From: Pararhodobacter zhoushanensis
GTDB taxonomy: Bacteria > Pseudomonadota > Alphaproteobacteria > Rhodobacterales > Rhodobacteraceae
Reading direction: 5' to 3'
DNA length: 64,000 bases
Assembly (NCBI RefSeq): GCF_003990445.1
Contig: NZ_REEZ01000006.1
Span: 1-64,000, forward strand
The notes under the pieces were generated by a model. The model was not told the origin of the DNA, ran no database searches, and saw only the letters and a list, made by a program, of their open reading frames with translations. Below are positions 1 through 15,474 of the stretch, piece after piece. The position numbers and the translations under genes are program-made. Within the stretch, counting starts at the first letter, position 1. Each line of letters starts with the position of its first letter.

Positions 1-54
1 AAGGTGTTCCTCTCGGCCATCGCCCTCGCTGCGACCGTTCTCTTCTGGCTTTGA
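1..54 (+). CDS. C-terminal end of an unidentified protein (cut by window edge)
   Basis: The first 54 bases read as an open frame ending in TGA after the residues KVFLSAIALAATVLFWL. The segment is hydrophobic and could be the last membrane helix of an integral membrane protein, or a short anchor. Only the tail is visible, so the function cannot be given. It points toward the IS256 element. A terminator-like hairpin follows about 100 bases downstream. Confidence 0.45.
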   Translation, partial: KVFLSAIALAATVLFWL

Positions 55-157
55 AAATCAATGAGTCTGGAACCTAAGGGCTCGGCGTCGAGGCCCATAC
101 CTTGCTGACACACCGGGATTAGAAATTTTATCTCTCAAAATCAGCCAGATAAAAGGA

Positions 158-190
158 AAACGGGCCTACCCTCTGCAGGTAGGCCCGTTG
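158..190. terminator. Strong hairpin terminator, probably bidirectional
   Basis: A perfect 11-bp stem (ACGGGCCTACC paired with GGTAGGCCCGT) has a 7-base loop. AAAA lies on its left and a GCTTTTCT run on its right, so it can end transcription in either direction. It probably closes the gene whose tail is at the left edge. Confidence 0.75.
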
Positions 191-283
191 CTTTTCTACT
201 GACATCCACAGCGCCCGACATCGGCCCGTGGGCAATCTATGCGGTGATACTGGACACCAAACCGCACCAAATGGGCAAACTAT

Positions 284-311
284 GGTCACGTCCGTCAAGG
301 TGGTGTAAATT
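284..311 (+). repeat. Left terminal inverted repeat of the IS256 element
   Basis: This end lies downstream of the transposase stop codon. It pairs imperfectly with 1634-1661 through CGTCCG, then TGGTGTAA, then TT. Confidence 0.75.
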
Positions 312-333
312 GCGAGATGGCCTGAGGTCATGA

Positions 334-1539
334 TCAGGCGGCTCTTGTGGTGATGCTGAGAAGCGGGTCGATCTCCTCCTTGTCGATCTGGGCGAATGCC
401 TCGACCATCATGTAGCGGCTGGAGGTCTGCCATTCGTCATTCTGTTCGAACAGCACGGCGCCGATCAGACGCAGGATCGAGGCCTCGTTCGGGAAGATCC
501 CGACGACATCAGCGCGGCGTTTTACTTCTTTGTTCAGGCGCTCGATCGGGTTCGTACTGTGAAGCTTCGTGCGGTGCTGGCGCGGAAAGGCCATGTAGGC
601 CAGCACGTCATGCTCGCTGGCGTCCATCAGATCGGCGAGCTTGGGCCAGCGGGGTCGAACTTGATCCGCCACGCGATGCCATGTTTCCGCGGCATGGGTG
701 CGGTCAGGTTGTTCGAAGGCCTGGCGGATCGCGGCGGCCACGACCGTGTGCTGGCCCTTCGAGACGTGAGCCAGTGCATTGCGCATCCAGTGAACGCGGC
801 AACGTTGCCAGGTCGCTTCAAAGACGCGGGTGATGGCGGCCTTGAGGCCGGTGTGGGCATCGCTGACCACCAGCTTCACCCCATCGAGGCCACGGGCCTT
901 CAGAGAGCGCAGGAAATTCGTCCAGAACGTCTCTGCCTCGGATGGGCCAATCCCCAGGCCGATGATCTCCCTGCGGCCTTCGGTGTTGGCGGCGACGGCG
1001 ATTATCGCCGCGACGCTAACGATGCGCCCGCCCTGGCGCTGCTTGAGGTAGGTGGCGTCGAGCCAGACGTAGGGCCAGTCCCCGGTCAGGGGTCGGTTCA
1101 GGAACTCACCGACACGCTCATCAATGTCTTTGCACAGCTTGGAGACGGTGCTCTTCGAAATGCCACTCAGCCCCATGGCCTGCACCAGATCGTCGACCTT
1201 GCGTGTCGAGACGCCGCTGATCCACGCCTCCTGTATCACGGCCACCAAGGCCTGCTCGGAGGTCTTGCGGGCCTCGAGGAAGCCAGGAAAGTAGCTGCCC
1301 TGCCGCAGCTTCGGCACCTTCAGGTTCAGCGTGCCGAGCCGGGTGTCGAAGGACCGATCTCGGTGGCCATTGCGCCACGTCGTGCGCCCCTCGGCCCGTT
1401 CGTGTCGCCCGGCACCGATCAGGCCATCGACATCGGCCTCCATGATCAGCTGAAGGACAGCCTCGGCGATGCTGCGCAATAAATCCCCCTGATCGTGCTT
1501 TGCCAGAAGCTCGGACAGGTCCATTGTGGTCTTGGTCAT
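334..1539 (-). CDS. IS256-family transposase
   Basis: This is a full-length 401-residue mutator-type (Transposase_mut) DDE transposase that catalyses excision and insertion of the surrounding element. The catalytic residues are visible: D161 in VWLDATYLK, D227 in VVSDAHTGL and E333 in NPIERLNKEVKRR. The family C-x2-H motif is CRVH at 247-250. The N-terminal part (about 1-100) contains the conserved EGRTTWRNGHRDR stretch, and the frame has no disruption. The ATG has a GGAGACC ribosome-binding site a few bases upstream. The gene lies wholly inside the terminal repeats and looks functional. Confidence 0.95.
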   Translation of the reverse strand: MTKTTMDLSELLAKHDQGDLLRSIAEAVLQLIMEADVDGLIGAGRHERAEGRTTWRNGHRDRSFDTRLGTLNLKVPKLRQGSYFPGFLEARKTSEQALVAVIQEAWISGVSTRKVDDLVQAMGLSGISKSTVSKLCKDIDERVGEFLNRPLTGDWPYVWLDATYLKQRQGGRIVSVAAIIAVAANTEGRREIIGLGIGPSEAETFWTNFLRSLKARGLDGVKLVVSDAHTGLKAAITRVFEATWQRCRVHWMRNALAHVSKGQHTVVAAAIRQAFEQPDRTHAAETWHRVADQVRPRWPKLADLMDASEHDVLAYMAFPRQHRTKLHSTNPIERLNKEVKRRADVVGIFPNEASILRLIGAVLFEQNDEWQTSSRYMMVEAFAQIDKEEIDPLLSITTRAA

Positions 1540-1633
1540 CGGGGTCTCCGTGTGGTTCGCGGTTGAAGCGTCGAAACTCCACCTCGATCATACACCTCGA
1601 TGGCCACCTCGCCCTACACCGGCAGCGCCGATG

Positions 1634-1661
1634 AAATTACACCACGTCCTCGGACGCTACC
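1634..1661 (-). repeat. Right terminal inverted repeat of the IS256 element
   Basis: This repeat lies upstream of the transposase start. On the minus strand it reads GGTAGCGTCCGAGGACGTGG and then TGTAATTT. Its TAG supplies the stop codon of the truncated HTH gene next to it. Confidence 0.75.
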
Positions 1662-1821
1662 CGATTGCCGCTTCGATCCGCGGAGATCTTTTCCTACCCG
1701 CCAACACGTTCGACACCGCAGGTCGACTGTATCCGATACTCTCAGCAAGCTCCGTGATCGTCGTCCCGGACATCCCGAGATGCAGTTTCACGATCTGCTG
1801 GCGCATTTTGTCTGCGTCCAT
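1657..1821 (-). pseudogene. Small phage-type helix-turn-helix regulator truncated by the IS
   Basis: The 54-residue frame begins MDADKMRQQIVKLHLGMSG and contains a clear HTH: ITELAESIGYSRPAVSNVLA at about 22-41, followed by GRKRSPRIEAAIG. It resembles the small Ner/Cro-like DNA-binding proteins of prophages and mobile elements, which usually go on for 20-40 more residues with a LG-x-x-x-x-IWP-like tail. Here the frame meets a TAG inside the IS terminal repeat, so the C-terminus is lost. I could not find the missing tail on the other side of the element. The HTH core is intact, so residual DNA binding is possible. Confidence 0.6.
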
Positions 1822-2136
1822 ATCTTACAGCCTTCAGCGGGAACGAACGTTTCTAATCAAGCCGGGTTTGTTTTCTCGAACCGAACCGATTCTAGAAAGC
1901 CCCCAGAGCAGCTTGCAAGGGGAATCTGGAGTCTTACCCCGGAGAAGTCTCAATTAGTTCTGACACTTAACTTACCTTTCCCTTGGAATGTCAGATGGCA
2001 ATTTCACATTAGACATTGGCGGCGGAACAAAGGTTTCCGAAGACGTCGGGAAACCCACACCATACCGAAAGAGGTCCTCGGCTTTTGTGCAGTCACATGC
2101 CAATGTCTGGGACGGATTCTGACGAAAGCGGAGGGC
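1822..2136. other. Intergenic stretch, no gene seen
   Basis: About 315 bases lie between the divergent truncated HTH gene and the phosphoesterase gene. The open frame that continues upstream of the phosphoesterase has no family features and no ribosome-binding site, and I treat it as non-coding. The stretch probably carries the promoters of both neighbours, but no convincing -35/-10 pair can be picked. Confidence 0.5.
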
Positions 2137-2697
2137 ATGCACTTGGCCAACTGGTATTCGGCCGACTTGCACTTCGGCCATCATCGCATCATCGACTTCT
2201 GTAAGCGCCCGTTTGCCTCGACAGTCCAGATGAACGCCACGTTGATCGCAAACTTCCAGGCCTGCGTCCATCATGACGATGATCTGTGGATTCTGGGGGA
2301 TTTCGCGTTCGGACGGGCCGAGGATACGGCGCAGTTCGAGAGCTGGTTTCACAGCCTCCCCGGGCGCAAGCACCTGATCATCGGCAACCACGATGATGAA
2401 GCAGTGATTTCGCTACCCTGGGAAAGCACCGAGTACATGGCCGAGATCAATGACGGCGATCAAAGCCTCATTCTTTGCCACTATCCGATGATCACTTGGA
2501 ACGGCGCTCGACGGGGTGCCTTACAGCTCTTCGGCCACGTTCACGACCAGTGGCCTGGCTCACGTAACAGCCTGAACGTCGGCGTCGACCAGTGGGACTT
2601 CCGTCCCGTGCAGGTTTCCGACATCATAGGTCGGGCCGCAACGCTGCCCGTGAACAAGCACTGGCATGATGTGGAACACGGGAACGAGCTTAGTTGA
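2137..2697 (+). CDS. Calcineurin-like metallophosphoesterase (COG4186 type)
   Basis: This 186-residue protein is the usual length for the small bacterial predicted phosphoesterases of COG4186. All dinuclear-metal motifs are present in order: SADLHFGHHR near the N-terminus (D-x-H), LGDFAFG (GD), IGNHDDE (GNHD), LCHYPM (H) and FGHVHDQW (GHxH). It should hydrolyse a phosphoester, but the substrate is unknown. The start is the ATG preceded by GCGGAGGGC. An in-frame extension of nearly 180 codons upstream lacks a ribosome-binding site and any domain. The gene converges on the STAND-nuclease gene and sits between it and the IS, so it belongs to the accessory block. A role with the defence genes is possible but only inferred. 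Confidence 0.9.
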   Translation: MHLANWYSADLHFGHHRIIDFCKRPFASTVQMNATLIANFQACVHHDDDLWILGDFAFGRAEDTAQFESWFHSLPGRKHLIIGNHDDEAVISLPWESTEYMAEINDGDQSLILCHYPMITWNGARRGALQLFGHVHDQWPGSRNSLNVGVDQWDFRPVQVSDIIGRAATLPVNKHWHDVEHGNELS

Positions 2698-2844
2698 GAA
2701 TGCTGTGCCCGGTAGGCGGCACAATGGTACAGCGGCAGGCAGCACCCATCGCTCCAGATGGACCTGAACGGCCGGTCGAATTGGCACTGTGCTACCGGTC
2801 TTTTCTTCAAAGGCGCGCAATCGCGGTACCAGTGAACTCGGGGC

Positions 2845-5800
2845 TCAGCGCCTTGCGAGGTCAAGAACCACAACATCGATCTTGCCCACGAGTTCGGCGG
2901 ACAAGCCTTCTTCAAGTTTCTTTTTCAGATCAGAGACCTGCAAGTTATCGTGGTTCTTCAGGCCTGCAATCTTTTCGTTCGTCCCAAACCAGAGAACTAG
3001 ATAGACGCCCTGATCTTCTGCAGTTGGGTGTACTGCGTAGCGATCTGAAAGCTGCATGTGGGCCGCCGTGAAAAGCTCAGCGTTCCATTGACCTTTAACT
3101 TCAACAACCAGCATCTTGCGCCCTGCAGACGTCTGGATGGATGCTGTAATGTCGCATCGGTTGCCATCAGCTAGCTGGTGTTCGATCACATCCACGAACC
3201 CCAGGGGCTCAAGGCGAGGTCTCAGCCAGTTTACGATGCGCCGGGTCGCGGCGTTCTCGCCAAGCCGCTGTCCTTTCTCGTAAAACTGGTCGATCACTCC
3301 GAGGTCGCCGCCCTGAATATCGTCCTGCAATCGTCCAAGGTACTCGACAACGATGCCGCGCATGTGTTCAACGCTGGCTGGCCGTGCCTGATCAAGTGCC
3401 GCTCTGACGGCTGCGGCACTCGGTGGGGTAAAGTCGCGTAGGGATCTTGTGCGCCTGCTCGTCGCCCGGATGCTTCGCAGATTTATGTGAAACGGTGCCA
3501 TTCGACGATCGGCGAGAAGGCCATCCAGAACCGGCAAGACAGCGTCCGTCGTATCCCGTCCAATCGTGTAGACGATGTCACAAAGATAGCGATAGGCGAC
3601 TTCAGGCTTCGGGCTCCCCGTTCCCCAGCTTGAAGGGAGTGGGACAGGCGGCCAGCGGTCAATGAACGTGTCTAAGATGCGCGCGATTTTCGCGGCACTC
3701 AGGTCGGGCCACGTCGCATCCTCCCCTCTCTGGTCACTTCGAATGTGTTCAAGTTCGAAGATGAAATCCGGATCACGATCCAGAACCGACCAGACCGCCG
3801 GCTGATCCTCATCCAAGAACCAGAAGTGGCGAAGGAACCAAAAGCGCCGTTGCGCCTCGAGCCGGTGGGGCAGCATGCCGGAATCAAGGTCTGCACAGCG
3901 CTCCCTGATCAACGAAAGCAGGTCTGCGCGATCCCCGTAGCGAACAGCCATGTCGAAGAGCCGGTTCAAGGGATGGTGCGCGATGGCCGGAAACTTGCGC
4001 AGCCATTCCAAAGGACGCGTAGGCCGTAGGAAATGGAACGTTGGCTTTCGTTCCAACCAACTTACGTCTGCCGCTTCGCTGCCAGAGGCGAGCTGAGCTT
4101 CAACGTACCCTGTTATGAATGCGTCGGCGTCGGTGTCGTTGCGAAAAAGCAATGCGTCGACCGCTTCCTCGAATTGTACGCGTTCATCCTCACTAACCCC
4201 ATTGTATCCGCCGATATCTGTGCGAACCGCAGCGAGGATGCGCCGATCAATATGCGACAGGTCTCCGGTGGCCCTGAACTCGGCGACGCAGGCGGCATGG
4301 AGCCTGGCAACGCTTGCGCGGGCGGTGCCCAATGCACACTGTTCCAAGTTCGGGATGTCATCGACGACGACGCGGAGATAGTTCCGCAGGGCCGCGTCCA
4401 CGTCGATCAATCCGTGCGTAAGTTCCTGCATTTCGTCGGGCTGAATGAGGTAGTACTGCGCGATGTGCGTCAGCCAACCCTTGTGACGGCCAGCCTCGAT
4501 AATGCTGCGGTCTCGGTTCAGTGATAAGACCGCGGCGCCTTCAGCCGCACGATCTCGACGGCGCCGACGGGCTTGGAAGCGAGAGCGTCGATCGCGGTTC
4601 CGCTGCCAGTAATCGAACTGCCTGCGCTGCCGAAGTGCCCACCTTTCGAGGAATGCGGGCTTCTGTTGCGCTTGCCATCGCGCATACCGCCGCAGATCGT
4701 TCGGACCTCGTTCGCTCGGTCCGGCGTAGAAATGGTGCGATGGCGAAAAGAAATCCCAAAGCTCGAAGTTATCCGTGGCGAACGCATAATCCATCGCGGG
4801 CCGAATATCGTCGCGCAGGAAGGAGAGGCCGGCGTGACCATAGCGGTCGGTTCTTTGGTCGATCATGGCCTCCCGCGTGGTTAGCCCGTCGAACATTAAC
4901 CGCTGAATTTCACGACGCAGGTGGTGTTCCTCGTGCAGGACGCGGACTGCTGGGCTATCCTTGGCACCGACCGAGCGATGGAAGTGAAGCGGTTTCAAAC
5001 AACTCCAGATCCTTGCAGGATCCCGCGGCGCCTCGGCGATGTCAAAATATCGGTCTAGGAGATGCCCAGCAATCTTGCTGATGCCATCTCGGCAGTGACA
5101 ATCCCATGGACGCGCACCGCAAGTACACGTCAAGCCTCGTGTAATCTCATCAAGCAGCCAGCCACACAGATCAGCATCGAAATCCCGCACCAGAATTCTT
5201 ATGAAGTATCGTGATCCGATCACGCGGTCGCGCTCTTTTGGATCAGTCGGGTACAAGTTGGCGCAGGACAGAAGCAGGTCGCGAAGCCTTTCGCGAGGTT
5301 GGCGTCTCACACCCACGTGGGTAACGATCTCTGCAGCAAGACGCAGGGCCTCGTTTGTGCCAGACGCGATAAGTGGATCGATCATCGGTGCCAGGTCGAG
5401 CTCTTCCCTTGCGAGGCAATCGAACGCTGCGTGCCTGCACCGCGGCGTGGCGGTGTCGTCCAGAATGATCGCTTTCAGTTCTGGACGAAGCGCGGTGACC
5501 GCAGGCGAGCCCGATAGAAGCTCCAGCAACAATGCGCGCAAGTCACCTCCGGTTTCGCGAACGATCATCGGGCGGATCGCATCAACGATGTCGGGAGAAA
5601 AGAACCCCGAGGCGCTGAAATTTCGCCAGCGATCTACGCGGCGGAAGAAGGGATCATCGGCCTCCAGTTTGCCGAGGGCTTCAAGAAGTCGATGTCTGGA
5701 CCTAACCGAGAGACGCGATGGATCCCCGTTTGAGAGGACGGCATATGGGTCAACGTCGATGGCCGCATCCTGGACATTCTGGCTTCCTAATGCAGCCATC

Positions 5801-6765
5801 CAGCCAAGGAGACCACGAAGGTCATCGCGGGTAGCACCGTTGGGTGCTACAAGGCTGAGACACTGTTTTACGGTGAATGTGTTTGCAGGATCGTCAACCC
5901 GTTGGACAAGCGCGCGGGCTGCACAGTGCTCCGCAACAATGCGATGGACAGGTTCATGTCGATCGGCGCCAGCAGCCGGACGAAAGAGGCGGGTATCAAG
6001 GATCGAGGGTAGTCGTTGGTCGGGCAGGCCAAGGTCTGCGAGACGGGGGAACGTGGGGCCTTCGGCGAAATCGGCCATTGCAACGCCATCGCAACCTGAC
6101 AAGAGAAGTCGAGCAAAGACCTCGTCCGCCCAAGCTATGCGTTGCTCAGTTGTGGGCGCATCTCGTGTGGAAACCGACCTATTCGTTTCGCGAGCGAGAT
6201 ACCGAACCGCATCGCTGAAAATCTCATGTCGCTCCGTGAATCGGCCTCCGGCCTGAACGAACGCATCCGCGAACAGGTTCAGGAACTCCGGATTGCCAAG
6301 GAGATGAGTTAGGTCGTGGCGGGCGGCATCGGAAAGGAAGTCCTCGAAGTTGGCATCTGGATGTCGGTATCGAAAGAGCAGAGCTTGCTCGTTTTGATCA
6401 AATGGGACCAACCTGGCGATGGTTGGCTCGATACCCGTGATGTCATGCAGCAGGCGAGTGTCCGCGTCGCTCCACTCCCCAGATCGGCTCGACAGAATTG
6501 TGTGCTCTGCTCCCGTGTGACGCAGTTCTTTGAATGTGCGATGAAGGCCTGTCGGATCAATGCGAGCAACCTCGTCGAATGCATCGACGACAATGCACGG
6601 CGCATGCGTTCGTTCGAAAATGCTGGCCTTGACCGAAGTGGTGCCAAAGCGTGCTGCAAGACTTACCAGAAGTGCTGACTTTCCTGACCCTGGTTCGGCT
6701 AGAACAATTGCTACGCCGGGACCTGAAAGCAGGTCAGTTTCCAGCACCTGCATTTCACCTAACAA
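2845..6765 (-). CDS. NACHT/STAND-like P-loop NTPase with C-terminal PD-(D/E)XK nuclease
   Basis: This is a very large protein (1306 residues from TTG; 1302 from the ATG four codons on). The NTPase core is at the extreme N-terminus: Walker A AEPGSGKS (23-30), Walker B CIVVDAFDE (57-65), a sensor-like ILSSRSGEW (90-98) and a GNPEFLNLF helix typical of STAND/NACHT modules. A long alpha-helical middle, plausibly repeat-like, includes a CxC-x6-CxC cluster (547-558) and a very Arg-rich stretch. The C-terminus (about 1190-1306) has a PD-(D/E)XK signature: D1205, then E1222-V-K1224, followed by a QLSDRY segment. This suggests a sensor whose NTPase gates DNA cleavage, as in anti-phage STAND proteins. 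The start is uncertain: an in-frame TAG lies only 14 codons upstream of the TTG, and AGGTGA directly abuts the ATG. A 242-bp gap separates it from herA upstream, so its own promoter is likely. I do not recognise it as a named system. Confidence 0.75.
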   Translation of the reverse strand: MLGEMQVLETDLLSGPGVAIVLAEPGSGKSALLVSLAARFGTTSVKASIFERTHAPCIVVDAFDEVARIDPTGLHRTFKELRHTGAEHTILSSRSGEWSDADTRLLHDITGIEPTIARLVPFDQNEQALLFRYRHPDANFEDFLSDAARHDLTHLLGNPEFLNLFADAFVQAGGRFTERHEIFSDAVRYLARETNRSVSTRDAPTTEQRIAWADEVFARLLLSGCDGVAMADFAEGPTFPRLADLGLPDQRLPSILDTRLFRPAAGADRHEPVHRIVAEHCAARALVQRVDDPANTFTVKQCLSLVAPNGATRDDLRGLLGWMAALGSQNVQDAAIDVDPYAVLSNGDPSRLSVRSRHRLLEALGKLEADDPFFRRVDRWRNFSASGFFSPDIVDAIRPMIVRETGGDLRALLLELLSGSPAVTALRPELKAIILDDTATPRCRHAAFDCLAREELDLAPMIDPLIASGTNEALRLAAEIVTHVGVRRQPRERLRDLLLSCANLYPTDPKERDRVIGSRYFIRILVRDFDADLCGWLLDEITRGLTCTCGARPWDCHCRDGISKIAGHLLDRYFDIAEAPRDPARIWSCLKPLHFHRSVGAKDSPAVRVLHEEHHLRREIQRLMFDGLTTREAMIDQRTDRYGHAGLSFLRDDIRPAMDYAFATDNFELWDFFSPSHHFYAGPSERGPNDLRRYARWQAQQKPAFLERWALRQRRQFDYWQRNRDRRSRFQARRRRRDRAAEGAAVLSLNRDRSIIEAGRHKGWLTHIAQYYLIQPDEMQELTHGLIDVDAALRNYLRVVVDDIPNLEQCALGTARASVARLHAACVAEFRATGDLSHIDRRILAAVRTDIGGYNGVSEDERVQFEEAVDALLFRNDTDADAFITGYVEAQLASGSEAADVSWLERKPTFHFLRPTRPLEWLRKFPAIAHHPLNRLFDMAVRYGDRADLLSLIRERCADLDSGMLPHRLEAQRRFWFLRHFWFLDEDQPAVWSVLDRDPDFIFELEHIRSDQRGEDATWPDLSAAKIARILDTFIDRWPPVPLPSSWGTGSPKPEVAYRYLCDIVYTIGRDTTDAVLPVLDGLLADRRMAPFHINLRSIRATSRRTRSLRDFTPPSAAAVRAALDQARPASVEHMRGIVVEYLGRLQDDIQGGDLGVIDQFYEKGQRLGENAATRRIVNWLRPRLEPLGFVDVIEHQLADGNRCDITASIQTSAGRKMLVVEVKGQWNAELFTAAHMQLSDRYAVHPTAEDQGVYLVLWFGTNEKIAGLKNHDNLQVSDLKKKLEEGLSAELVGKIDVVVLDLARR

Positions 6766-7007
6766 GAGCTTACGTGGGATATGAAACGGCGGCAGAGTTT
6801 GAACTTTCTAGTAAATCGAACTTTTTACGAAAATGCGACCTAACGAGTTGTGTCGCAAGCTGTATTCACATCCTCCACTGCCCAAGCCTGCTTTTAACGT
6901 TCGCACAACGGGTCACTTTCTACCCTGAAATTCGGAACCATGGTGCATGCTGCAACATTTACGAACGTCAGCTAAGGGCGAAGGTACCGCGATGCCTGAG
7001 TTCCCAC

Positions 7008-8807
7008 CTACCCCTCGACAACAGTGCCTCCGCCGCCCCAGAAGCGTTGATATTGAGGGCCATGGCTCTCAGGCTGCTGCCCCTTTTCAGGCTTTGTCAT
7101 CATGAGAGGCAATGGTGCTGGAAGGTCTGGCCCAACGACAATTGCTTCGCCTTGCGCAAGCGCAGGAATGAAAGCGGCAGCACTCCTGTCGAGATCGCCA
7201 CAGGCTTTCTCTATTGTTTCCCGATCCCGTTCGTTAGTTAGTCGATGGACGAACAAGGTTCCAAGTTGGCTGAGCACGTCCGGAGGCACGTCACGCGGTC
7301 GTTGCGTGGCGATCACTGTCGTAAGACCGTATTTGCGACCTTCCTTGGCGATTAAGCCGAACGCATCGAGAGACACATGGTTTTGCTCGTCACCGACGGA
7401 CCTGCCGATGAACTGGTGAGCTTCGTCTAAGAAGCACACCAACGGGCACTCACGGAACCGCCCCTGCCGCGCAAGTCCTAACAGGTAGCGCCCAAGCGTA
7501 TTCAGGAGTAGTTCGCGGGTATTATGCTTAAAGCTAACCTTCTCGAAGGAAAGGACCATGGCATTTGCGCTGGGATCACCCAAAAAACTTTCAATCTCGG
7601 CTGAGATGTCCAACCCATTTTCTGAGAAGATACAGGCCAACTCAGGCGAAGAAAGGTAGGTCTCAATTCGAATGATCAATGTGTTGCAGTAGCCAATTGC
7701 AGCATTATCGAGGCCACCGAAGCTAGCCGCGTCATTGCCAACTGGGCGAACGCATTCATTTCGAACTTGCCGAGACAGAGCACGGAAATCGAAATCGCAT
7801 TGCTCAGCGGTCAACTGCTCTGCGAGCAACAACTCTGCCCTTCCGAAGGCAACCCGACTTTGGTTTGCCTTCTCAATTGAGCCGTGCTCTTCGATAACCA
7901 CATAGCCGAATGGGTTTTCTCCCTGACGGATAAGAACCTTTGTTCTCTTACCCTCGGCTTCCTGTGTGAAAAGATGAGGTGCGTCACGCAAGGCTTTAGA
8001 CATGCGCAGGCTTTTGGTCGCGCCGCGAAGCATGGGACCTTGGCTTTGGCCGGTTGGCGTCAAGAGAGCATGGAGGTCAAGTTCCGAAAGCAGCTTGCTC
8101 GGGAAACGCACCAGTGGCTGCCCTGGGAGCGTGGCCTCGGCAAATGCGAACTGCTTTGCACCAGCAACCTTACCTGTGAACTCTCCTGTCGGATCAAACA
8201 GGATGCACTTCCCACCGATCCGAACGACCTCGTTGACTAAGCGCGATACCGTCCAGCTTTTGCCGCCCCCGGTGGCCCCAAACACACCGCAATGACGACC
8301 GAACAGCTTTTCTGGCGGGATGCTGATCTCTGCATCCTCCAGCCCCGCCAGCCTGCCCAAGTTGACCATCAACGGCTCAGTGCTTCCGTCTGCCCCACCT
8401 CGCAGTGCATCTTGGATCGAAGCCGACAAGGCGCTTCCATCGGCGAGATATACCCCGTCTCCGACGCGCGGCTGCGAGCTGATCCCGCGCGAAACTTTTC
8501 GCGTTGTCTTGCTCACGGTCGCAAGCAATTGGATGCGGCCATTAGGCTCTACCAGTGCTTCCTGCTCGATCTGATGCTCTAGGCTCGGTCTTTGTTTCTC
8601 GGGGATGCCGACTTCTGTAATCCGCCCGAGAACGGTCTCCCGGTCGCAATCAACGAACACAAAGTTACCTACCGCGCCCTTCGCCAGCCCTCTGCGCCCA
8701 GAAGCTGCCAACGCGTTGGGAAGCGTGAGTTCAACGGCGCTGGCCGTGACGCGTGTAACAGTTCCGATGCGCTTGAGCGGGTCGATCAGTGAAGCAGGCT
8801 CGGTCAT
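7008..8807 (-). CDS. herA: HerA-like ATPase of a SIR2-HerA anti-phage system
   Basis: This is a 599-residue FtsK/HerA-superfamily ATPase. Residues 1-120 fit the HerA beta-barrel (HAS) domain, with LKRIGTVTRV at the start. Walker A is GATGGGKS (177-184), Walker B is LVCFLDEAH (456-464), ATQRP at 500-504 is the sensor-like strand, and a TNERD segment (524-528) follows. HerA proteins form hexameric DNA translocases. Paired with SIR2 they make the SIR2-HerA (Nezha) defence complex, in which NAD depletion and NTPase or nuclease activity block phage. The start codon overlaps the SIR2 stop in ATGA, so the two are translationally coupled. The C-terminus ends in a Gly-rich GGGGTVVEG tail. Confidence 0.9.
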   Translation of the reverse strand: MTEPASLIDPLKRIGTVTRVTASAVELTLPNALAASGRRGLAKGAVGNFVFVDCDRETVLGRITEVGIPEKQRPSLEHQIEQEALVEPNGRIQLLATVSKTTRKVSRGISSQPRVGDGVYLADGSALSASIQDALRGGADGSTEPLMVNLGRLAGLEDAEISIPPEKLFGRHCGVFGATGGGKSWTVSRLVNEVVRIGGKCILFDPTGEFTGKVAGAKQFAFAEATLPGQPLVRFPSKLLSELDLHALLTPTGQSQGPMLRGATKSLRMSKALRDAPHLFTQEAEGKRTKVLIRQGENPFGYVVIEEHGSIEKANQSRVAFGRAELLLAEQLTAEQCDFDFRALSRQVRNECVRPVGNDAASFGGLDNAAIGYCNTLIIRIETYLSSPELACIFSENGLDISAEIESFLGDPSANAMVLSFEKVSFKHNTRELLLNTLGRYLLGLARQGRFRECPLVCFLDEAHQFIGRSVGDEQNHVSLDAFGLIAKEGRKYGLTTVIATQRPRDVPPDVLSQLGTLFVHRLTNERDRETIEKACGDLDRSAAAFIPALAQGEAIVVGPDLPAPLPLMMTKPEKGQQPESHGPQYQRFWGGGGTVVEG

Positions 8808-10120
8808 GCGTTAGTCTCCCCGAGCGTGGCCAGACGGTCTTGCAAAAGCTGACGGTCTGTCTTGCCAGATATCTCGGGGATTGCATGGGCCAGGTCCTCG
8901 AAACGCCCATTCAGGACGGTGATCCTGCTGTCCCCCTGCTGCACGAGCTTGATGATCTTCTTTTGATAAGAACGCTGCGTATCAAGTTCGAGGTCGATTT
9001 CATGCGCATCTATTGCGTCAAGTCGCTGATGGGGAACAAAGCCCCTGTCACACAGGATCACGCGCAACGACAAGTTTGTCTCAATGGCTGACCAGATCGG
9101 AGCGCTGATGTGATAGTCGGCAAAGCCGAACCCCGAAACGATCAGCGTCGTGTCAGGCTCTCGCAGTGCCTCTTGCAGGGCCGCGAACATGTCGAGGTAG
9201 GGCGTTTCAAACGCCTCCTGATATTTGGTCGAGCGCGGATAGATCAGGACCGGGCGCAGTTCATCAGTGGCTTCTGCCTGACTGCGGATCACAACACCAT
9301 CGGCTTGTCTGCGCCAGTCCACCGACCCGTGTAGTTTGTAGGAGTGAAAGACCCCATCAAGGTAATCAGCCTTTGTGCTTTTCGTGGAGCGCCGCACGAT
9401 GTCGTGCTGAAAGTGATCCCGATTGAACCGCTGTACAGCAGCGTGTGAAAATCCGTCTACCAGAACGACGCCCAAACGGGCTGCCGCCGTTTCAATGCAG
9501 AGGTCGTAATTGGTAGTAAACAGCTTGACGCGCGGCTTCTCGGGCGAGCGGCGTCCGAATTTGCGAATAAACCCCACGTGGGCGGCCAGCTCCGTATCCA
9601 GCCTCACGAAATCCACCTTCTCAAGGATGGTCTTTTCCGCGGCCTTGATGAACTTTTCTAGGCTTCTGAGCTTGGGCTGCTCTATGAAAAGCTGGTCATT
9701 CTCCGACTGTACGCGCAATAGCTCAATTGACATCTTACACAGGCTTAGCAGCCCCTCAATGTTTTCTTTGCCCTCGTCGGGAACATCGCCCATCACATAT
9801 GTGACGATTTGATCGAAGGCATCATGGCCGTATCCATCGCGGACGGCGTACCAGAGGTCCCACATACCGGGTGCTTTGGACCCATCTGCGCTCTTAGCGC
9901 AGAAAGAAGCGCCAGATCCTAACAGCACGACCACATTGGTCGAGTGCAAGGCATCGTTCAGCTTGTCCTCCACCTGCTCACGGCATCCCGTGATGCGTTT
10001 GCTTTTTGCATCATCCGGGTCGGCTTCCTTGTCAGACCAAGCCAGCCACTTTGCATTACCTGTCAGCAGGCGCAGAAGGTCTTTTTTGCCATCGTGGAGG
10101 CTTTCCCAAAAATCGGTCAT
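8804..10120 (-). CDS. SIR2-family NAD hydrolase of a SIR2-HerA anti-phage system
   Basis: This is a 438-residue SIR2-like (SIR2_2/DUF4917-type) protein. The Rossmann NAD-binding loop is VVVLLGSGASF (63-73). The catalytic Asn lies in FTTNYD (N204) and the catalytic His in KLHGSVDW (H264). SGFGFAD (329-335) forms the second NAD-contacting strand. The sirtuin zinc-binding cysteines are absent, as in defence SIR2 proteins, which degrade NAD+ and do not deacetylate. It is the first gene of a two-gene operon with herA (4-bp ATGA overlap). The expected role is abortive NAD+ depletion on phage sensing, with HerA as partner. Its promoter should lie between 10121 and about 10300, but no clear consensus is seen. 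Confidence 0.92.
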   Translation of the reverse strand: MTDFWESLHDGKKDLLRLLTGNAKWLAWSDKEADPDDAKSKRITGCREQVEDKLNDALHSTNVVVLLGSGASFCAKSADGSKAPGMWDLWYAVRDGYGHDAFDQIVTYVMGDVPDEGKENIEGLLSLCKMSIELLRVQSENDQLFIEQPKLRSLEKFIKAAEKTILEKVDFVRLDTELAAHVGFIRKFGRRSPEKPRVKLFTTNYDLCIETAAARLGVVLVDGFSHAAVQRFNRDHFQHDIVRRSTKSTKADYLDGVFHSYKLHGSVDWRRQADGVVIRSQAEATDELRPVLIYPRSTKYQEAFETPYLDMFAALQEALREPDTTLIVSGFGFADYHISAPIWSAIETNLSLRVILCDRGFVPHQRLDAIDAHEIDLELDTQRSYQKKIIKLVQQGDSRITVLNGRFEDLAHAIPEISGKTDRQLLQDRLATLGETNA

Positions 10121-10866
10121 AGTAAAACTCGCTCGAAATCCCTCACCGCGCCTCGCACTCTGTCAGCGTGATCTATTCGCGATACAGCTTCCTGCTGGCA
10201 GTTTTTGAAAAGATCGTATTCACACGCCTAATCTGACCGGAGCAAGAACCGTGAAATACAGGAGTTCTGAATATCGCCCATTGTCGCGGAACCTTCCCAA
10301 ATAACAGAAACCTACTCGCTCTCAGAAGGCACTATTTCCGGCAGTGGTTTGGAAGGCAAGGCAATCAGAGCGTGTGAGTGCAAAGAAACGCCCGCCGAGT
10401 TCTTGGTGAACAGCTTGTCCCACAGGCTTAGCCGGCCAGCATGACGTCTGAGGCGTGGCCGGTCTGGACGCGATTGTCATAGCGGAGGAAGCCGCCTGTG
10501 CTGATGAGGTCGCAAAGACTAGCGGCCCTCGCGCAACAACCCGGCGCCATGGTCTGCTTCGAAGCCACCGATTGGCAGGAGTGGAGGTTATGCTGCGCAA
10601 GGTCATCCATGTCTGGTTCGGGTAAGCTGCAATGCGGCTACACCGCTTCCGGCGAATAACGCCATTGGGCCGGCACCGGCGGCAACCAGCGCCAAGATGA
10701 ACTGGGCAATTGGCCGGCTCCTGACAAACTAAGACCTGATGCACGCGGAACCGCATTCACTTGCTGCGCCTGCCTTTGTTCATACGATCACATGATGCGC
10801 AACGGAGGTCGATTTGGCCTGCTGCCCAGCAAAAACACTGGCAGGCGTCTCCACAACCGGACATGC
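10121..10866. other. Gene-free boundary of the defence island, possible transposase debris
   Basis: About 750 bases hold no intact gene. Short frames exist on both strands but none has a ribosome-binding site or family features. On the plus strand, 10519-10587 reads LAALAQQPGAMVCFEATDWQ. This resembles the conserved strand of IS110-type transposases (A-L-V-x-x-E-A-T-G) and is followed by stops within a few dozen codons. This may be a decayed IS110 fragment, at low confidence. The stretch joins SIR2 to the conserved nrdJ region. I see no tRNA gene and no direct repeats that would mark an attachment site. Confidence 0.45.
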
Positions 10867-10901
10867 AAACGGCCTCGGGTACTCCCCGAGGCCGTTTCTT
10901 T
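10867..10901 (+). terminator. Hairpin terminator at the island/core junction
   Basis: A perfect 13-bp stem (AAACGGCCTCGGG with CCCGAGGCCGTTT) has a 5-base loop and is followed on the plus strand by CTTTA. No intact plus-strand gene precedes it, so it may be the leftover terminator of a deleted gene. It could also insulate the end of nrdJ on the minus strand. Confidence 0.65.
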
Positions 10902-10982
10902 ATCACCTCAGCCAAAATGACCTTGTGAGACGGTTAGGTCATGTCGCGTGGCACGCCACAACTACTTCCCACCCCACCACCG

Positions 10983-13241
10983 TCACCCGCATTTCGAATG
11001 CCCGCAGGCGCGGCAGGTCATGCAGCCTTCGATCATTACCAGCTCATACGCGCCACAGGACGGGCACGAGGCGGGGCGGACGTTGCTGGTCACCGGGCCG
11101 GCCTTGGGATCGGATTTCAGCCCCAGTCCCTGCCCTTCGATAAAGCCGATGGCGACCAGATGTTCCTCGATGACGCCGCCAATCGCGGCAAGGATCGAGG
11201 GGATGTACTTCCCCTGCATCCACGCCCCGCCGCGCGGATCGAACACGGCCTTCAGCTCTTCGACGACAAAGGACACATCGCCCCCGCGCCGGAACACCGC
11301 GCTGATCATCCGCGTCAGCGCCACGGTCCAGGCGTAATGCTCCATGTTTTTCGAGTTGATGAACACCTCGAACGGCTGCCTGCGCCCGCCGACGATGATG
11401 TCATTGACGGTGATATAGATCGCGTGCTCGCTCACCGGCCATTTCAGCTTGTAGGTGTGGCCCTCCAACGCCTCGGGGCGGTCCAGCGGCTCGGAGAGGT
11501 AGATCACCTCGGCGCCGGTATCGGTCTGCGGGGCTTTCTCGCTGGTCTCGGAAACGGTCAGCACCGAGCCGGTCACAGCATTGGGCCGATAGGTCGTGCA
11601 GCCCTTGCAGCCCATGTCCCAGGCCGCCATGTAGACGTCCTTGAAGGATTGAAAATCAATGTCTTCCGGGCAGTTGATGGTCTTGGAGATACTCGAATCC
11701 ACCCATTTCTGCGCCGCCGCCTGCATGCGCACATGCTCCATCGGGGCAAGTGTCTGGGCGCTAACGAAATACTCGGGCAGCGGCGCATCGCCGTTCTTCT
11801 CACGCCACAGCGCGACGGCGTAATCGACCACCTCTTCCTCGGTGCGCGAGCCATCCTTCTGCAAGACCTTGCGGTTATAGGCATAGGCGAACACCGGCTC
11901 GATCCCCGAGCTGACATTCCCGGCATAGAGGCTGATCGTCCCCGTCGGCGCAATCGAGGTCAACAGCGCGTTGCGGATACCATGCGCGCGCACAGCCTCG
12001 CGCACATCGTCATCCATCGCCTGCATGGTCCCAGAGGCGAGGTACTTCTCGGCATCAAACAGCGGGAAGGCCCCCTTCTCGCGCGCCAGATCGACCGAGG
12101 CGAGATAGGCCGCCCGCGCAATCGCCCGCATCCACGCGTCGGTCTGGACGACAGCGTCGTCCGAGCCATAGCGCAACCCCATCATCAGCAGCGCATCGGC
12201 CAGACCGGTGACGCCCAGACCGATGCGACGTTTGGCCTCAGCCTCAGCCGCCTGCTGCGGCAGCGGGAATTTCGACGCGTCAACCACGTTATCCATCATC
12301 CGCACAGCCGTGCGCACCAGCGCGTCCAGCTCGGCCGTATCGATGCCGGCATCGCTCTCGAAGGGCGCCTTGACCAACCGGGCCAGATTGATCGACCCCA
12401 GCAGACACGCGCCATAAGGCGGCAGGGGCTGCTCGCCGCAGGGGTTGGTGGCGGCAATCGTCTCGACATAGCGCAGGTTGTTGGCGGTGTTGATCCGGTC
12501 GATGAAGATCACGCCGGGCTCGGCATAGTCATAGGTCGCGCGCATGATCCGGTTCCACAGATCCAGCGCCTGCACGGTGCGGTAGACCCGGCCATTGAAC
12601 TGCAGATCCCACGGCCCATCGGCTTTTACGGCATCCATGAACGGATCGGTCACCAGCACCGACAGGTTGAACATCCTTAGCCGGGCGGAATCCTGTTTGG
12701 CGGCGATGAAATCCTCGATATCCGGGTGATCGCAACGCATCGTCGCCATCATCGCCCCCCGGCGGCTGCCTGCCGACATGATCGTCCGGCACATCGCGTC
12801 CCAGACATCCATGAAGCTGAGCGGCCCTGACGCATCGGCGGCGACCCCATGCACCACAGCGCCCTTGGGGCGGATGGTGCTGAAATCATAGCCGATGCCG
12901 CCGCCCTGCTGCATGGTCAGCGCGGCCTCTTTCAGCATCTCGAAAATGCCGCCCATGCTGTCGGGGATCGTGCCCATGACGAAGCAGTTGAACAGGGTAA
13001 CAGCGCGGCCCGTCCCGGCCCCGGCCAGAATACGCCCCGCGGGCAGAAAACGGAAATCTTCAAGCGCGGTATAGAAGCGGTCCTCCCACAGCACCGAATC
13101 GCTCTCGACCGAGGCCAGATCACGCGCCACGCGGCGCCAGCTGTCTTCCAGCGTGGCATCGAGGGGCGCACCACCGGCGTCTTTGAGCCGGTACTTCATG
13201 TCCCAGATCTGCTCGGCAATGGGGGCGGAGAAACGGCTCAT
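10983..13241 (-). CDS. nrdJ: Adenosylcobalamin-dependent (class II) ribonucleoside-diphosphate reductase
   Basis: This 752-residue class II ribonucleotide reductase makes deoxyribonucleotides with an adenosylcobalamin radical and needs no oxygen. Characteristic segments are FLPAGRILAGAGTGR and LFNCFVMG near the N-terminus, QQGGGIGYDFS, AATNPCGEQPLPPYGAC (the active-site NPCGE loop) and SIAPTGTISLYAGNVSSG. The C-terminus has the extra domain with paired cysteines (CPSCG...CMTCRACGHSKCG), which binds zinc and carries the redox-active tail in this subfamily. The ATG preceded by AGGA at about -10 is preferred over a TTG six codons earlier. The gene is divergent from the DUF1489 gene. No cobalamin-riboswitch-like leader is visible in the 143-bp upstream gap. 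Confidence 0.96.
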   Translation of the reverse strand: MSRFSAPIAEQIWDMKYRLKDAGGAPLDATLEDSWRRVARDLASVESDSVLWEDRFYTALEDFRFLPAGRILAGAGTGRAVTLFNCFVMGTIPDSMGGIFEMLKEAALTMQQGGGIGYDFSTIRPKGAVVHGVAADASGPLSFMDVWDAMCRTIMSAGSRRGAMMATMRCDHPDIEDFIAAKQDSARLRMFNLSVLVTDPFMDAVKADGPWDLQFNGRVYRTVQALDLWNRIMRATYDYAEPGVIFIDRINTANNLRYVETIAATNPCGEQPLPPYGACLLGSINLARLVKAPFESDAGIDTAELDALVRTAVRMMDNVVDASKFPLPQQAAEAEAKRRIGLGVTGLADALLMMGLRYGSDDAVVQTDAWMRAIARAAYLASVDLAREKGAFPLFDAEKYLASGTMQAMDDDVREAVRAHGIRNALLTSIAPTGTISLYAGNVSSGIEPVFAYAYNRKVLQKDGSRTEEEVVDYAVALWREKNGDAPLPEYFVSAQTLAPMEHVRMQAAAQKWVDSSISKTINCPEDIDFQSFKDVYMAAWDMGCKGCTTYRPNAVTGSVLTVSETSEKAPQTDTGAEVIYLSEPLDRPEALEGHTYKLKWPVSEHAIYITVNDIIVGGRRQPFEVFINSKNMEHYAWTVALTRMISAVFRRGGDVSFVVEELKAVFDPRGGAWMQGKYIPSILAAIGGVIEEHLVAIGFIEGQGLGLKSDPKAGPVTSNVRPASCPSCGAYELVMIEGCMTCRACGHSKCG

Positions 13242-13384
13242 CGGGCGTCCTGACGGCAAGAGTTTGGCTGTATGGAGAGCGACGGAAGATAGTCTGCCGC
13301 CACGCCGGGGTCAACGTATTGAACCGCGACGGAACGGCGGGATCGCGCCTTGAACTTGCGGGGCATCGGGGCACATATGGGGCC

Positions 13385-13810
13385 ATGACCGTTCACATCC
13401 TCAAACTCTGCGTCGGCTGCGAATCGATTGAGGATCTCGCCGATTGGCAGATCCAGCGCGCCAGCGAGCGGCCCGACGGGCTGCCGCGCCATGTTACCCG
13501 CATGTGGCCAAAACGCGCGGATGAGATCACCGATGGTGGCTCGATCTACTGGATCATCAAAGGCCAGGTGAGCGTGCGCCAACGCATTGTCCGGCTGGAT
13601 GAGGTGGTCGGTGACGACGGCATCCGCCGCTGCGCGCTGGTGCTTGACCCCGAGCTGGTGCGCCTCCAACCCGCGCCCCGCCGGCCGTTCCAGGGCTGGC
13701 GCTACCTGTCGCCCGAAGACGCCCCGCGCGACCTGCCGCGATACCGTGCCGGCGACGATGAACTGCCGCCCGAGCTTGCCGAAGCGCTGGCGGAGTTCGG
13801 CTTGAGGTAG
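13385..13810 (+). CDS. DUF1489 family protein
   Basis: This 141-residue protein is conserved in alphaproteobacteria and of unknown function. It begins MTVHILKLCVGCESIEDL and contains the family stretch GGSIYWIIKGQVSVRQRI (about 51-68), followed by a Pro/Arg-rich C-terminal half. There is no signal peptide or membrane segment, so it should be cytosolic. It is divergent from nrdJ and convergent with the HAD gene. The first ATG in good context is used; the few codons upstream have no ribosome-binding site. Confidence 0.85.
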   Translation: MTVHILKLCVGCESIEDLADWQIQRASERPDGLPRHVTRMWPKRADEITDGGSIYWIIKGQVSVRQRIVRLDEVVGDDGIRRCALVLDPELVRLQPAPRRPFQGWRYLSPEDAPRDLPRYRAGDDELPPELAEALAEFGLR

Positions 13811-14110
13811 GCGCGGCTCGGACCCCATCGAGGGGTCCTCGCCGCGGCGGGTTGCCACCCGCACCCGCTTCAAGGGACGCACGCGCCCCTTGAAAATCCC
13901 CGTGGATATTTAGAGCATAAAGTTGAACAAAAAGCGGCACGCATCCCAGGGACACGCGCCGCCAACTTCATGCACGGTCATCGGCATCCCTGCCTGTACC
14001 GTGCGGCTATTCTGGGCCCGCAGCGTTAACAAAGGCTGAACGCCGCCCCAACTTTATGCCCAAAATATCCTGGGGGGTGAATTTGGCTTTAGCCAAAGAG
14101 GGGGGCTAGC
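13811..14110. repeat. Composite palindromic intergenic repeat, locus A
   Basis: This locus fills a convergent gap. In order it holds a GC hairpin around CCCCATCGAGGGG (13811-13848), a hairpin TTCAAGGG...CCCCTTGAA (13869-13894), the left arm GGATATTTAGAGCATAAAG plus TTG (13904-13925), a degenerate internal copy CAACTTCATGC (13963-13973), and the inverted right arm CAACTTTATGC plus AAATATCC (14049-14070). GGGGGCTAGCCCCC follows (14101-14114). The arms recur at about 25.5 and 62.0 kb. It probably acts as a bidirectional terminator, or is a REP-like element. Confidence 0.7.
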
Positions 14111-14125
14111 CCCCCTTACCCGCTC

Positions 14126-14788
14126 TCAGCCCTGCGCACGCAAGAGCAAGGGCATCATCGCTGCCACCAGTGCGCGCGCGCCGTTGGGCTCGTAATCCCA
14201 CCCCAACCAGCCGCGCTTTTCCGCGGCGGCGATGTTTGCGGCGGTGTCATCAATGAACAGGATCTCGAAAGGCGCCATGTCCAGCGCCTTCTCCACCGCC
14301 TCGAACGCTGCCGGGTTCGGCTTCATCAGCCCCGTCTCGCCCGACGCAAAGAACGCGTCCACCCGTTCGGCCCAGCCCGCATCCTGTGCGATCCAGCGGG
14401 CGCGGCGGGAGTCGTTGTTGGTAAAGATCGCCTGCACGATGCCGCCCTGCGCCAGCATCTCGACGATACGCTCAAGTTCGGGGTCCGGGTCGTGATCGGT
14501 CTCGAACCACAGTTCCAGCACGTCCTCGGGGGCCAGGTCGACGCCCGCGCTCTCGGCCCAGTCCGCCAGCCGGTCCATCACGTCGTCCTTGCCGGTGAAC
14601 AGTGCCGCCTTGTCACGCCCGAACACCGCCTTGCCCATCGCGACGGCGTCGATGCCCAGCTCGCGCCCGACCAGCGCCTGCCACGGGAAAATCCCCTGCG
14701 CATCCGGTCGCCCGGCGCGGTTGAGTACGCCGTCGAAATCCCAGACCACGGCGCGGACGGCGTCCAGTCCCTCGATCACCTCGCTCAT
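14126..14788 (-). CDS. HAD-family hydrolase (HAD-IA) at the end of the his operon
   Basis: This 220-residue haloacid-dehalogenase-like phosphatase has motif I VVWDFDGVLN (D17, D19), motif II IFTNND, the conserved Lys in GLMKPNP and motif III/IV FIDDTAANI. An insert between motif I and motif II fits a small helical cap. The substrate cannot be told from sequence. It is translationally coupled to hisG through an ATGA overlap and is the last gene of hisS-hisZ-hisG-HAD. A phosphatase at the end of a histidine operon recalls histidinol-phosphate phosphatase, but HAD-IA proteins are too diverse for that assignment. Confidence 0.85.
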   Translation of the reverse strand: MSEVIEGLDAVRAVVWDFDGVLNRAGRPDAQGIFPWQALVGRELGIDAVAMGKAVFGRDKAALFTGKDDVMDRLADWAESAGVDLAPEDVLELWFETDHDPDPELERIVEMLAQGGIVQAIFTNNDSRRARWIAQDAGWAERVDAFFASGETGLMKPNPAAFEAVEKALDMAPFEILFIDDTAANIAAAEKRGWLGWDYEPNGARALVAAMMPLLLRAQG

Positions 14789-15474
14789 GCCAGACGCTCC
14801 CGCAGGGCCTGCATCGCGGCCGTTTCACCCGCATCCAGCGCCGCAGCGCGCGTCGCGAAAAGCGTTGCCTGTGACAGCAGGATCGGTTCGGTATCGAGGA
14901 TCTTCAGATGGTTGGCGCGCAACGTCTCGCCAGTCGAAGTGATATCCGCCACCGCCTCGGCCGTCAGGTTGCGAATGGTGCCCTCGGTCGCGCCCTGGCT
15001 GTCGACCAGCTGATAATCCGCCACCCCATGCGCGCGCAGATAGTCGCGCACCAGCCGGTGATATTTCGTCGCGATCCGCAGCCGGAACCCGTGATCGGCA
15101 CGGAACGCCGAGGCCGCCGCATCCAGATCATCCAGCGTTTCGACATCGACCCAGCACTCGGGCACCGCGATGATCAGGTCGGCATGGCCAAACCCCATCG
15201 GCGCGATTTCCTCGACCACCGCTTGCCAGTCCGCCAGCTTTTCGCGCACCAGATCGGTGCCGGTGACGCCCAGATGAATACGCCCCGCCGCCAGCTCGCG
15301 CGGGATCTCGCTGGCCGAAAGCAGCACCAGCGAGACACCCTCGATCCCCTCGACAGCGCCCGAATATTCGCGTTCAGCGCCAGTGCGCTTCATGGTGATG
15401 CCGCGTTCGGCGAACCACTCGAAGGTCTTCTCCATCAACCGGCCTTTTGAGGGCACGCCAATCTTCACGCTCAT
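14785..15474 (-). CDS. hisG: ATP phosphoribosyltransferase, short form
   Basis: HisG joins ATP and PRPP in the first step of histidine synthesis. At 229 residues this is the short form, which lacks the C-terminal ACT-like histidine-binding domain and needs HisZ. Typical segments are [28 protein letters not shown] and the PRPP-binding EGTIRNLTAEAVADITSTG. It overlaps hisZ upstream by 4 bp and the HAD gene downstream by 4 bp. Coupled translation fits the HisG-HisZ octamer. Confidence 0.96.
   Translation of the reverse strand: MSVKIGVPSKGRLMEKTFEWFAERGITMKRTGAEREYSGAVEGIEGVSLVLLSASEIPRELAAGRIHLGVTGTDLVREKLADWQAVVEEIAPMGFGHADLIIAVPECWVDVETLDDLDAAASAFRADHGFRLRIATKYHRLVRDYLRAHGVADYQLVDSQGATEGTIRNLTAEAVADITSTGETLRANHLKILDTEPILLSQATLFATRAAALDAGETAAMQALRERLA

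What the first reader, a model, noticed from the sequence alone, without database searches (positions are those of the whole stretch)
2845..6765. Large STAND-like NTPase-nuclease of an unrecognised defence architecture
One 1306-residue protein combines an N-terminal P-loop NTPase (AEPGSGKS; CIVVDAFDE), a long helical middle and a C-terminal PD-(D/E)XK nuclease (D1205, E1222-V-K1224). It lies beside SIR2-HerA. Published NACHT/Avs-type proteins often have the effector at the N-terminus and the sensor at the C-terminus. Here the nuclease is C-terminal and the NTPase starts within the first 25 residues, so sensing would have to be done by the middle region. I cannot match it to a named system.
Basis: partly seen in the sequence, partly recalled or inferred. 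Interest (0 to 1): 0.8.

Follow-up and report, generated by a model that had tools for sequence, protein, structure and literature searches.

The report
EruA-type NACHT–nuclease phage defence protein
This big gene encodes a bacterial immune-receptor-like protein with an energy-driven switch at the front and a probable DNA-cutting domain at the back, and it belongs to an already named antiphage family (EruA), so it is a good example of a known kind rather than a new system.

Summary
A long ORF lies at 2845-6765 (-), and Walker A (K29), CIVVDAFDE and D1205/E1222-V-K1224 are exactly where stated. It is not an unrecognised architecture: NCBIfam NF058535.1, 'NACHT domain-containing antiphage protein EruA', covers it end to end at 1321.8 bits (cut-off 1000). 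PADLOC and Pfam give no whole-length hit, which may be why it looked new.

Additions. (1) The true start is almost certainly CTG at 6795, ten codons upstream of the TTG, giving 1316 aa. (2) In 29 aligned rows, 25 of them 18-47% identical to the window, the Walker residues and the nuclease set E..E..D..ExK..QL..Y are invariant. (3) Residues 601-900 vary most among close and among distant relatives, less clearly in between; they may be the sensor. (4) The gene travels on prophages, plasmids and islands, with SIR2 or HerA found nearby in 3 of 30 neighbourhoods.

Proposed mechanism: a phage cue releases the NACHT switch, which activates a C-terminal PD-(D/E)XK nuclease. My searches found no paper on this EruA.

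The parts
2845..6795 (-). EruA-family gene, 1316 codons plus stop, start codon CTG at 6793-6795
   Evidence: NF058535.1 1322.1 bits, residues 16-1313 = profile 13-1317 of 1318, cut-off 1000; start
6766..6795 (-). ten N-terminal codons missed by ATG/GTG/TTG gene calling (LPPFHIPRKL)
   Evidence: kept in frame in the window and 7 of 7 close relatives; differences by codon position 41/7/118
5806..6795 (-). NACHT NTPase module with following segment (residues 1-330)
   Evidence: Pfam NACHT listed (E up to 0.5) for 11 of 12 members of A2, best E 8.7e-7; the window protein itself has only sub-threshold AAA/nSTAND hits
6676..6699 (-).
   Evidence: G36, G38, K39 in 29 of 29 rows
6571..6597 (-). Walker B-type CIVVDAFDE (D71, D74, E75)
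   Evidence: D71, D74, E75 in 29 of 29 rows
5914..5955 (-). EPVHRIVAEHCAAR, winged-helix-type H..E motif of NACHT proteins (motif name recalled)
   Evidence: H284 and E289 in 29 of 29 rows
5092..5127 (-). CTCGARPWDCHC, a CxC-x6-CxC cysteine cluster, possibly zinc-binding (inference)
   Evidence: C557, C559, C566, C568 invariant in 12 of 12 core members; not among the columns conserved in the wider 29-row set
4096..4995 (-). most variable region among close copies, residues 601-900; proposed sensor
   Evidence: mean identity of five close copies to the window 0.795 here against 0.888 elsewhere; 16 outer rows 10.6-14.4% in the five bins here against 14.8-31.0% elsewhere; nine core rows show no clear dip
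2848..3348 (-). C-terminal PD-(D/E)XK-like nuclease domain (residues 1150-1316)
   Evidence: E1180, E1205, D1215, E1232, K1234, Q1248, L1249, Y1253, G1263, W1269, G1271 in 29 of 29 rows; weak profile match to Mrr_cat in register
   Evidence: 29 of 29
3094..3102 (-).
   Evidence: 29 of 29 for E and K

Best explanation
A single-gene, NLR-like antiphage protein of the EruA family. Shown here: full-length family membership, conserved nucleotide-binding and nuclease-type motifs, purifying selection and mobile distribution. Inferred: at rest the NACHT module holds the protein inactive with nucleotide bound. A phage cue is recognised by the variable middle (about residues 600-900), which frees the NACHT module to exchange nucleotide and oligomerise. 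That brings the C-terminal PD-(D/E)XK domains together, and they cut DNA (phage, host or both), stopping the infection, possibly at the cost of the cell. It does not need SIR2-HerA.
For: NF058535.1 EruA 1321.8/1322.1 bits against cut-off 1000. Pfam NACHT listed for 11 of 12 members, best E 8.7e-7. Walker and nuclease-type residues 29 of 29. Comparison of the C-terminal alignment with a Mrr_cat alignment (27 of 30 loci fetched) scores 22.1, above 40 column shuffles (best 16.3) and an unrelated alignment (16.9), with D and E-x-K opposite Mrr D and Q-x-K. A Hjc resolvase hit puts D and E-x-K in register, at E 1.8. Low dN/dS. Found beside phage genes, on conjugative plasmids, and near an integrase plus AAA/UvrD pair. 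Analogy: bNACHT25/32 are NACHT proteins with an N-terminal PD-(D/E)XK DNase required for defence (PMC12169576, passages).
Against: No structure: prediction was not accepted. The window's C-terminal domain has no Pfam hit, and the Mrr comparison has only 6.8% probability, E 0.0053 for a single comparison. The best PDB sequence hits of the C-terminal profile are glycoside hydrolase entries (E 0.0022), which have S opposite the catalytic D and D-L-K opposite E-x-K, and haemoglobin (0.73); Hjc comes below them. The window protein alone reaches no Pfam cut-off for a NACHT or AAA domain. The middle is not distinctly variable among the nine 34-47% members. The antiphage label is NCBI's; I could not find the experiment behind it.
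Confidence: 0.67

Rival explanations
1. EruA with a different target: the C-terminal domain cuts RNA or specific structured or modified DNA, so it restricts phage directly rather than by general DNA destruction.
For: The matches in catalytic register are to Mrr-type and Hjc-type domains, which act on modified or branched DNA (recalled).
Against: No substrate information at all; both matches are weak.
Confidence: 0.17
2. It works as one system with SIR2-HerA upstream: a three-gene operon in which SIR2, HerA and EruA act together.
For: Adjacent and co-directional in the window; a HerA remnant (97% identical over 157 residues) sits upstream of EruA in L007, SIR2 near it in L077, SIR2 and HerA in L087.
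Against: 3 of 30 distinct neighbourhoods only, though some are cut by contig ends and the search used the window's own SIR2 and HerA; in L077 and L087 the orientation differs; the two plasmid stretches annotated list no SIR2 or HerA.
Confidence: 0.06
3. The window copy is a dead or barely expressed remnant.
For: No ATG, GTG or TTG start at the conserved place; the L007 copy has a frame change; L030, L031, L032 and L035 match only part of the model.
Against: Full-length open frame, catalytic residues kept, dN/dS 0.06-0.21; CTG at the same place in 7 of 8 close sequences, window included.
Confidence: 0.06
4. A housekeeping or phage-replication ATPase-nuclease rather than defence.
For: Large P-loop protein; also sits beside phage genes.
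Against: Patchy: 10 of 391 order genomes and 10 of 398 phylum genomes over cut-off (window's genome included in each); no PHROG hit; mobile neighbourhoods; curated antiphage name.
Confidence: 0.04

Closest known systems
EruA, NACHT domain-containing antiphage protein (NCBIfam NF058535.1)
   Same: Whole length, above curated cut-off, one gene, same order of NACHT, middle and nuclease-type end.
   Different: The window's close clade has a CTG start, and its core group a CxC-x6-CxC cluster; the six outer over-cut-off members aligned are 19.5-24.0% identical to it.
HyoA, NACHT domain-containing antiphage protein (NCBIfam NF058534.1)
   Same: Sister architecture; one HyoA, L033 (1599.7 bits), keeps all ten C-terminal signature residues checked.
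   Different: Window scores 68 bits against a cut-off of 1200.
bNACHT25/bNACHT32 (N-terminal PD-(D/E)XK DNase, NACHT, NCH1; PMC12169576, passages)
   Same: NACHT switch plus PD-(D/E)XK-type nuclease.
   Different: There the nuclease is N-terminal and the sensor C-terminal; here the nuclease-type domain is C-terminal and the P-loop begins about 30 residues in.
Avs/STAND defence proteins (recalled)
   Same: STAND NTPase as switch.
   Different: Effector at the opposite end; PADLOC gives no Avs hit at E 0.1.
SIR2-HerA / Nezha (PMC11559045, passages)
   Same: Direct neighbour in the window.
   Different: NAD+-depleting two-gene system; not found near EruA in 27 of 30 neighbourhoods.

Membership tests
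EruA (NF058535.1) | Score over the curated cut-off along the whole model | tested here: met
   1322.1 bits against 1000, profile 13-1317 of 1318
EruA (NF058535.1) | NACHT-type NTPase | tested here: met
   Walker residues 29 of 29; Pfam NACHT listed for 11 of 12 members, best E 8.7e-7, though the window sequence alone is below Pfam cut-offs
EruA (NF058535.1) | Antiphage activity | not testable with these tools
   NCBI label only; no paper found in full-text searches
PD-(D/E)XK nuclease | Catalytic D and (D/E)-x-K with preceding E and following Q (pattern recalled) | tested here: met
   29 of 29 rows
PD-(D/E)XK nuclease | PD-(D/E)XK fold | tested here: inconclusive
   Weak profile match in register; non-nucleases rank above Hjc in the PDB sequence search; structure prediction not accepted
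HyoA (NF058534.1) | Score over curated cut-off | tested here: not met
   68 bits against 1200
Tripartite bNACHT/Avs layout | N-terminal effector, central NTPase, C-terminal sensor | tested here: not met
   P-loop at residues 33-40 of 1316, nuclease-type motif at 1180-1253
SIR2-HerA system component | Regular linkage with SIR2 and HerA | tested here: not met
   SIR2 or HerA found in 3 of 30 distinct neighbourhoods
Any PADLOC system (2023 models) | Model hit along the protein | tested here: not met
   Only mad8 at 16.8 bits over residues 13-94

The most novel reading that the evidence does not exclude
EruA and HyoA together form an inverted NLR class: switch first, sensor in the middle, nuclease last, so activation must pass through the sensor to the effector rather than the switch sitting between them. 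In the window's close clade a conserved CTG start codon keeps the dose of this dangerous protein low.
Probability: 0.3. Interest if true: 0.5.

Novelty: new member of a known kind. Interest (0 to 1): 0.3.

Why it matters
It settles that a striking-looking gene is a member of a named antiphage family that Pfam and the 2023 PADLOC library do not recognise along its length. It gives the domain order, catalytic-type residues, a candidate sensor and the probable true start needed to test how an NLR-like protein with its nuclease at the opposite end works.

Tried and rejected
Searched for the paper that named this EruA. Full-text searches: one paper, an unrelated E. coli regulator also called EruA, PMC12839154, listing only; HyoA, none; none; one, unrelated by its listing. 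Broader searches gave 13, 10 and 2 papers seen as listings; of these I looked inside only PMC13092281 and PMC13236601 for 'Eru' and 'Hyo', none found in the main texts, and PMC12169576 for other terms. The library holds open-licence papers only, so absence there is weak.

Considered and rejected: MADS (mad8) membership, because the hit is P-loop-sized, 16.8 bits; a joint SIR2-HerA-EruA system; an RNA element in 1-14000 (none at gathering scores); a phage protein family (no PHROG at E 0.01). The glycoside hydrolase PDB hit was set aside because the catalytic D is S there and the entry is named as another enzyme; it does have D-L-K opposite E-x-K. Viral-contig scans with L062, L063 and L010 as queries added no new relative.

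Rows dropped: the 29-row alignment took the window and 28 of the 49 loci with a tblastn hit. Left out: close copies L003, L004, L008, L021-L023; frame-changed L007; partial L011, L014, L030-L032, L035, L057; L047 with an in-frame stop; L033 (HyoA); L012, L013, L016-L018 (partial loci). Ten of the 29 rows (L029, L048-L056) score below the EruA cut-off. My script trimmed the first residues of L025 and L026. Rows were chosen as family members, so invariance shows constraint, not independent proof of homology. A5 also left out L044 (28 rows). The dN/dS set left out L006 (length) and L007, and the L002/L003 pair. The Mrr set used 27 of 30 loci (without L103, L122, L128).
Full report
What is there. 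The minus-strand ORF 2845-6765 encodes 1306 aa from a TTG. HerA (7008-8807) and SIR2 (8804-10120) lie upstream on the same strand; PADLOC names them HerA (483.7 bits) and SIR2 (291.1 bits).

Start codon. The frame is open for only 14 codons above the TTG, with no ATG, GTG or TTG among them. The ten codons CTG CCG CCG TTT CAT ATC CCA CGT AAG CTC are kept in frame in the window and seven close relatives, with CTG first in seven of the eight and GTG in L005. Differences over the nine codons after the first fall 41, 7 and 118 on codon positions 1, 2 and 3; in 24 nt just upstream, in five of the sequences, they fall 22, 27 and 23. Of nine core members at 34-47% identity, seven have ATG and one (L045) GTG within a few residues of the same place; L028 has none of ATG, GTG, TTG or CTG in the codons shown. 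L004 and L008 have further in-frame GTG or TTG codons upstream, so for those two the start is less certain. The window protein is therefore almost certainly 1316 aa from CTG 6795.

What it is. NCBIfam NF058535.1, an equivalog named 'NACHT domain-containing antiphage protein EruA', matches at 1321.8 bits against a cut-off of 1000, and at 1322.1 with the corrected start, profile 13-1317 of 1318. The sister model HyoA gives 68 bits against 1200. PADLOC finds only a P-loop-sized mad8 hit, and no Pfam hit of the window protein reaches its cut-off.

Relatives. Seven relatives at 86-88% identity over the full length came from one scan of genome contigs, by their titles six from genera I recall as Rhodobacterales and one MAG labelled Verrucomicrobiaceae on a 10 kb contig. 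In sampled genomes, matches over the EruA cut-off occur in 10 of 391 of the order and 10 of 398 of the phylum, the window's genome counted in each; at E 0.001 the counts are 65 and 67, many of them short P-loop matches, and 2 of 14 control genomes also ring at that level, none over the cut-off. With the protein itself as query, 8 of 385 of the class matched at E 0.001, window's genome included. The plasmid collection holds 23 records with a match, 3 covering at least 80%; the phage collection 1, covering 54%.

Anatomy. In 29 rows (selection told in Tried and rejected), G36, G38, K39, D71, D74, E75, R104, W108, P169, H284, E289 and, at the far end, E1180, E1205, D1215, E1232, K1234, Q1248, L1249, Y1253, G1263, W1269 and G1271 are present in 29 of 29. 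Apart from three rows at 86-88%, identities to the window run 17.6-46.9%. Pfam NACHT is listed for 11 of 12 core members at E up to 0.5, best 8.7e-7. A CxC-x6-CxC cluster at 557-568 is invariant in 12 of 12 core members.

Is the end a nuclease? The residue pattern is that of PD-(D/E)XK enzymes (recalled). Against a Mrr_cat alignment built from 27 of 30 fetched loci, the C-terminal alignment scores 22.1 with D and E-x-K in register; 40 column shuffles reach at most 16.3 and an unrelated alignment 16.9; but hhalign gives only 6.8% probability. A PDB sequence search finds Hjc resolvase in register at E 1.8, below glycoside hydrolase entries at 0.0022 and haemoglobin at 0.73. Pfam lists 11 families at E up to 1 among the 28 C-terminal domains, each in one or two members, none of them named as a nuclease domain; the best is Tcp11 at 0.0048. 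I judge the assignment likely but unproved. Structure prediction was not accepted. One HyoA protein, L033, keeps all ten C-terminal signature residues checked.

Where sensing may lie. Five close copies average 0.795 identity to the window over residues 601-900 and 0.888 elsewhere; the least conserved 300-residue block starts at 589. In the 16 outer rows the five bins of 601-900 show 10.6-14.4% identity; elsewhere bins range from 14.8 to 31.0%. Against this, the nine core rows show 30.0-37.6% there, and bins such as 481-540 (31.4%) and 961-1020 (31.1%) are as low; among close rows bin 1-60 (76.7%) is as low too. dN/dS over 14 pairs is highest at 421-900 (0.18-0.21) and lowest at 301-420 (0.064). 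This is faster change under constraint, not positive selection, and makes the sensor assignment a proposal.

Context. G+C is 53-60% over 1-11000 and 63-69% over 11000-19000, which looks like an acquired stretch; it holds an IS256 element and is followed by genes I read as housekeeping (ribonucleotide reductase, histidine synthesis, GroEL; by eye). L007 shares with the window a HerA remnant, EruA with a frame change, and the phosphoesterase gene at 93.5%. In L060 the four neighbours tested are tail-completion, head-maturation protease, major head and tail sheath proteins; in L062 the one tested is a major head protein, and other ORFs begin like those of L060. Neighbours tested in L005, L006, L061 and L063 hit endolysin or peptidase and tail fibre, integrase, primase and DNA methyltransferase families. 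H1 and H2 are conjugative plasmids. L008 has an integrase and an AAA/UvrD pair that looks like Gabija (name recalled).

Mechanism. By analogy with bNACHT25/32, in which a PD-(D/E)XK DNase on a NACHT protein is needed for defence (PMC12169576, passages), I propose a NACHT switch controlling a C-terminal nuclease, with the cue read by the variable middle. The switch and nuclease-type residues are shown; the cue, oligomerisation, substrate and outcome are inferred.

Verdict. A well-observed, real gene; a member of a named antiphage family; the 'unrecognised' claim fails. Remaining interest lies in the reversed domain order and the CTG start.

Noticed in passing
6766-6795 (-), and the same place in L002-L004, L006-L008: A CTG start codon in 7 of 8 close EruA sequences (window included), missed by ATG/GTG/TTG gene calling; L028 has no usual start codon there either.
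   Followed up: yes
7008-8807 and 8804-10120 (-): SIR2-HerA pair, far below the cut-offs of NCBIfam's antiphage SIR2 and HerA models (118.5 against 500 and 131.2 against 800 bits) but best hit by PADLOC SIR2 and HerA models.
   Followed up: partly
284-1661: IS256 transposase (334-1539 -) with 28-base arms, 75% complementary, around it; the window is the start of its contig, and the arm searched occurs once in the assembly at up to 2 mismatches.
   Followed up: partly
2137-2697 (+): Small metallophosphoesterase-like gene, convergent with EruA and kept beside it in L007; weak PdeM (27 bits, cut-off 150) and PDC-S10 (20.1 bits) hits.
   Followed up: partly
L060:1-12214, L062:4995-12421: EruA genes within structural gene clusters of viral-collection contigs, next to head and tail genes.
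   Followed up: partly
L007:1033-10266: EruA copy of Mameliella alba with a frame change in its N-terminal part, followed at some distance by TniB and Mu-type transposase genes.
   Followed up: partly
L008:12994-17792: EruA followed by an integrase and an AAA_15/UvrD pair resembling Gabija (name recalled).
   Followed up: no
L002:6226-7769: HipA-like gene directly upstream of EruA, with a small ORF before it that looks like a helix-turn-helix protein by eye.
   Followed up: no
L003: An EruA contig assigned to a Verrucomicrobiaceae MAG is 86% identical to the window's protein; either transfer or a binning error.
   Followed up: no
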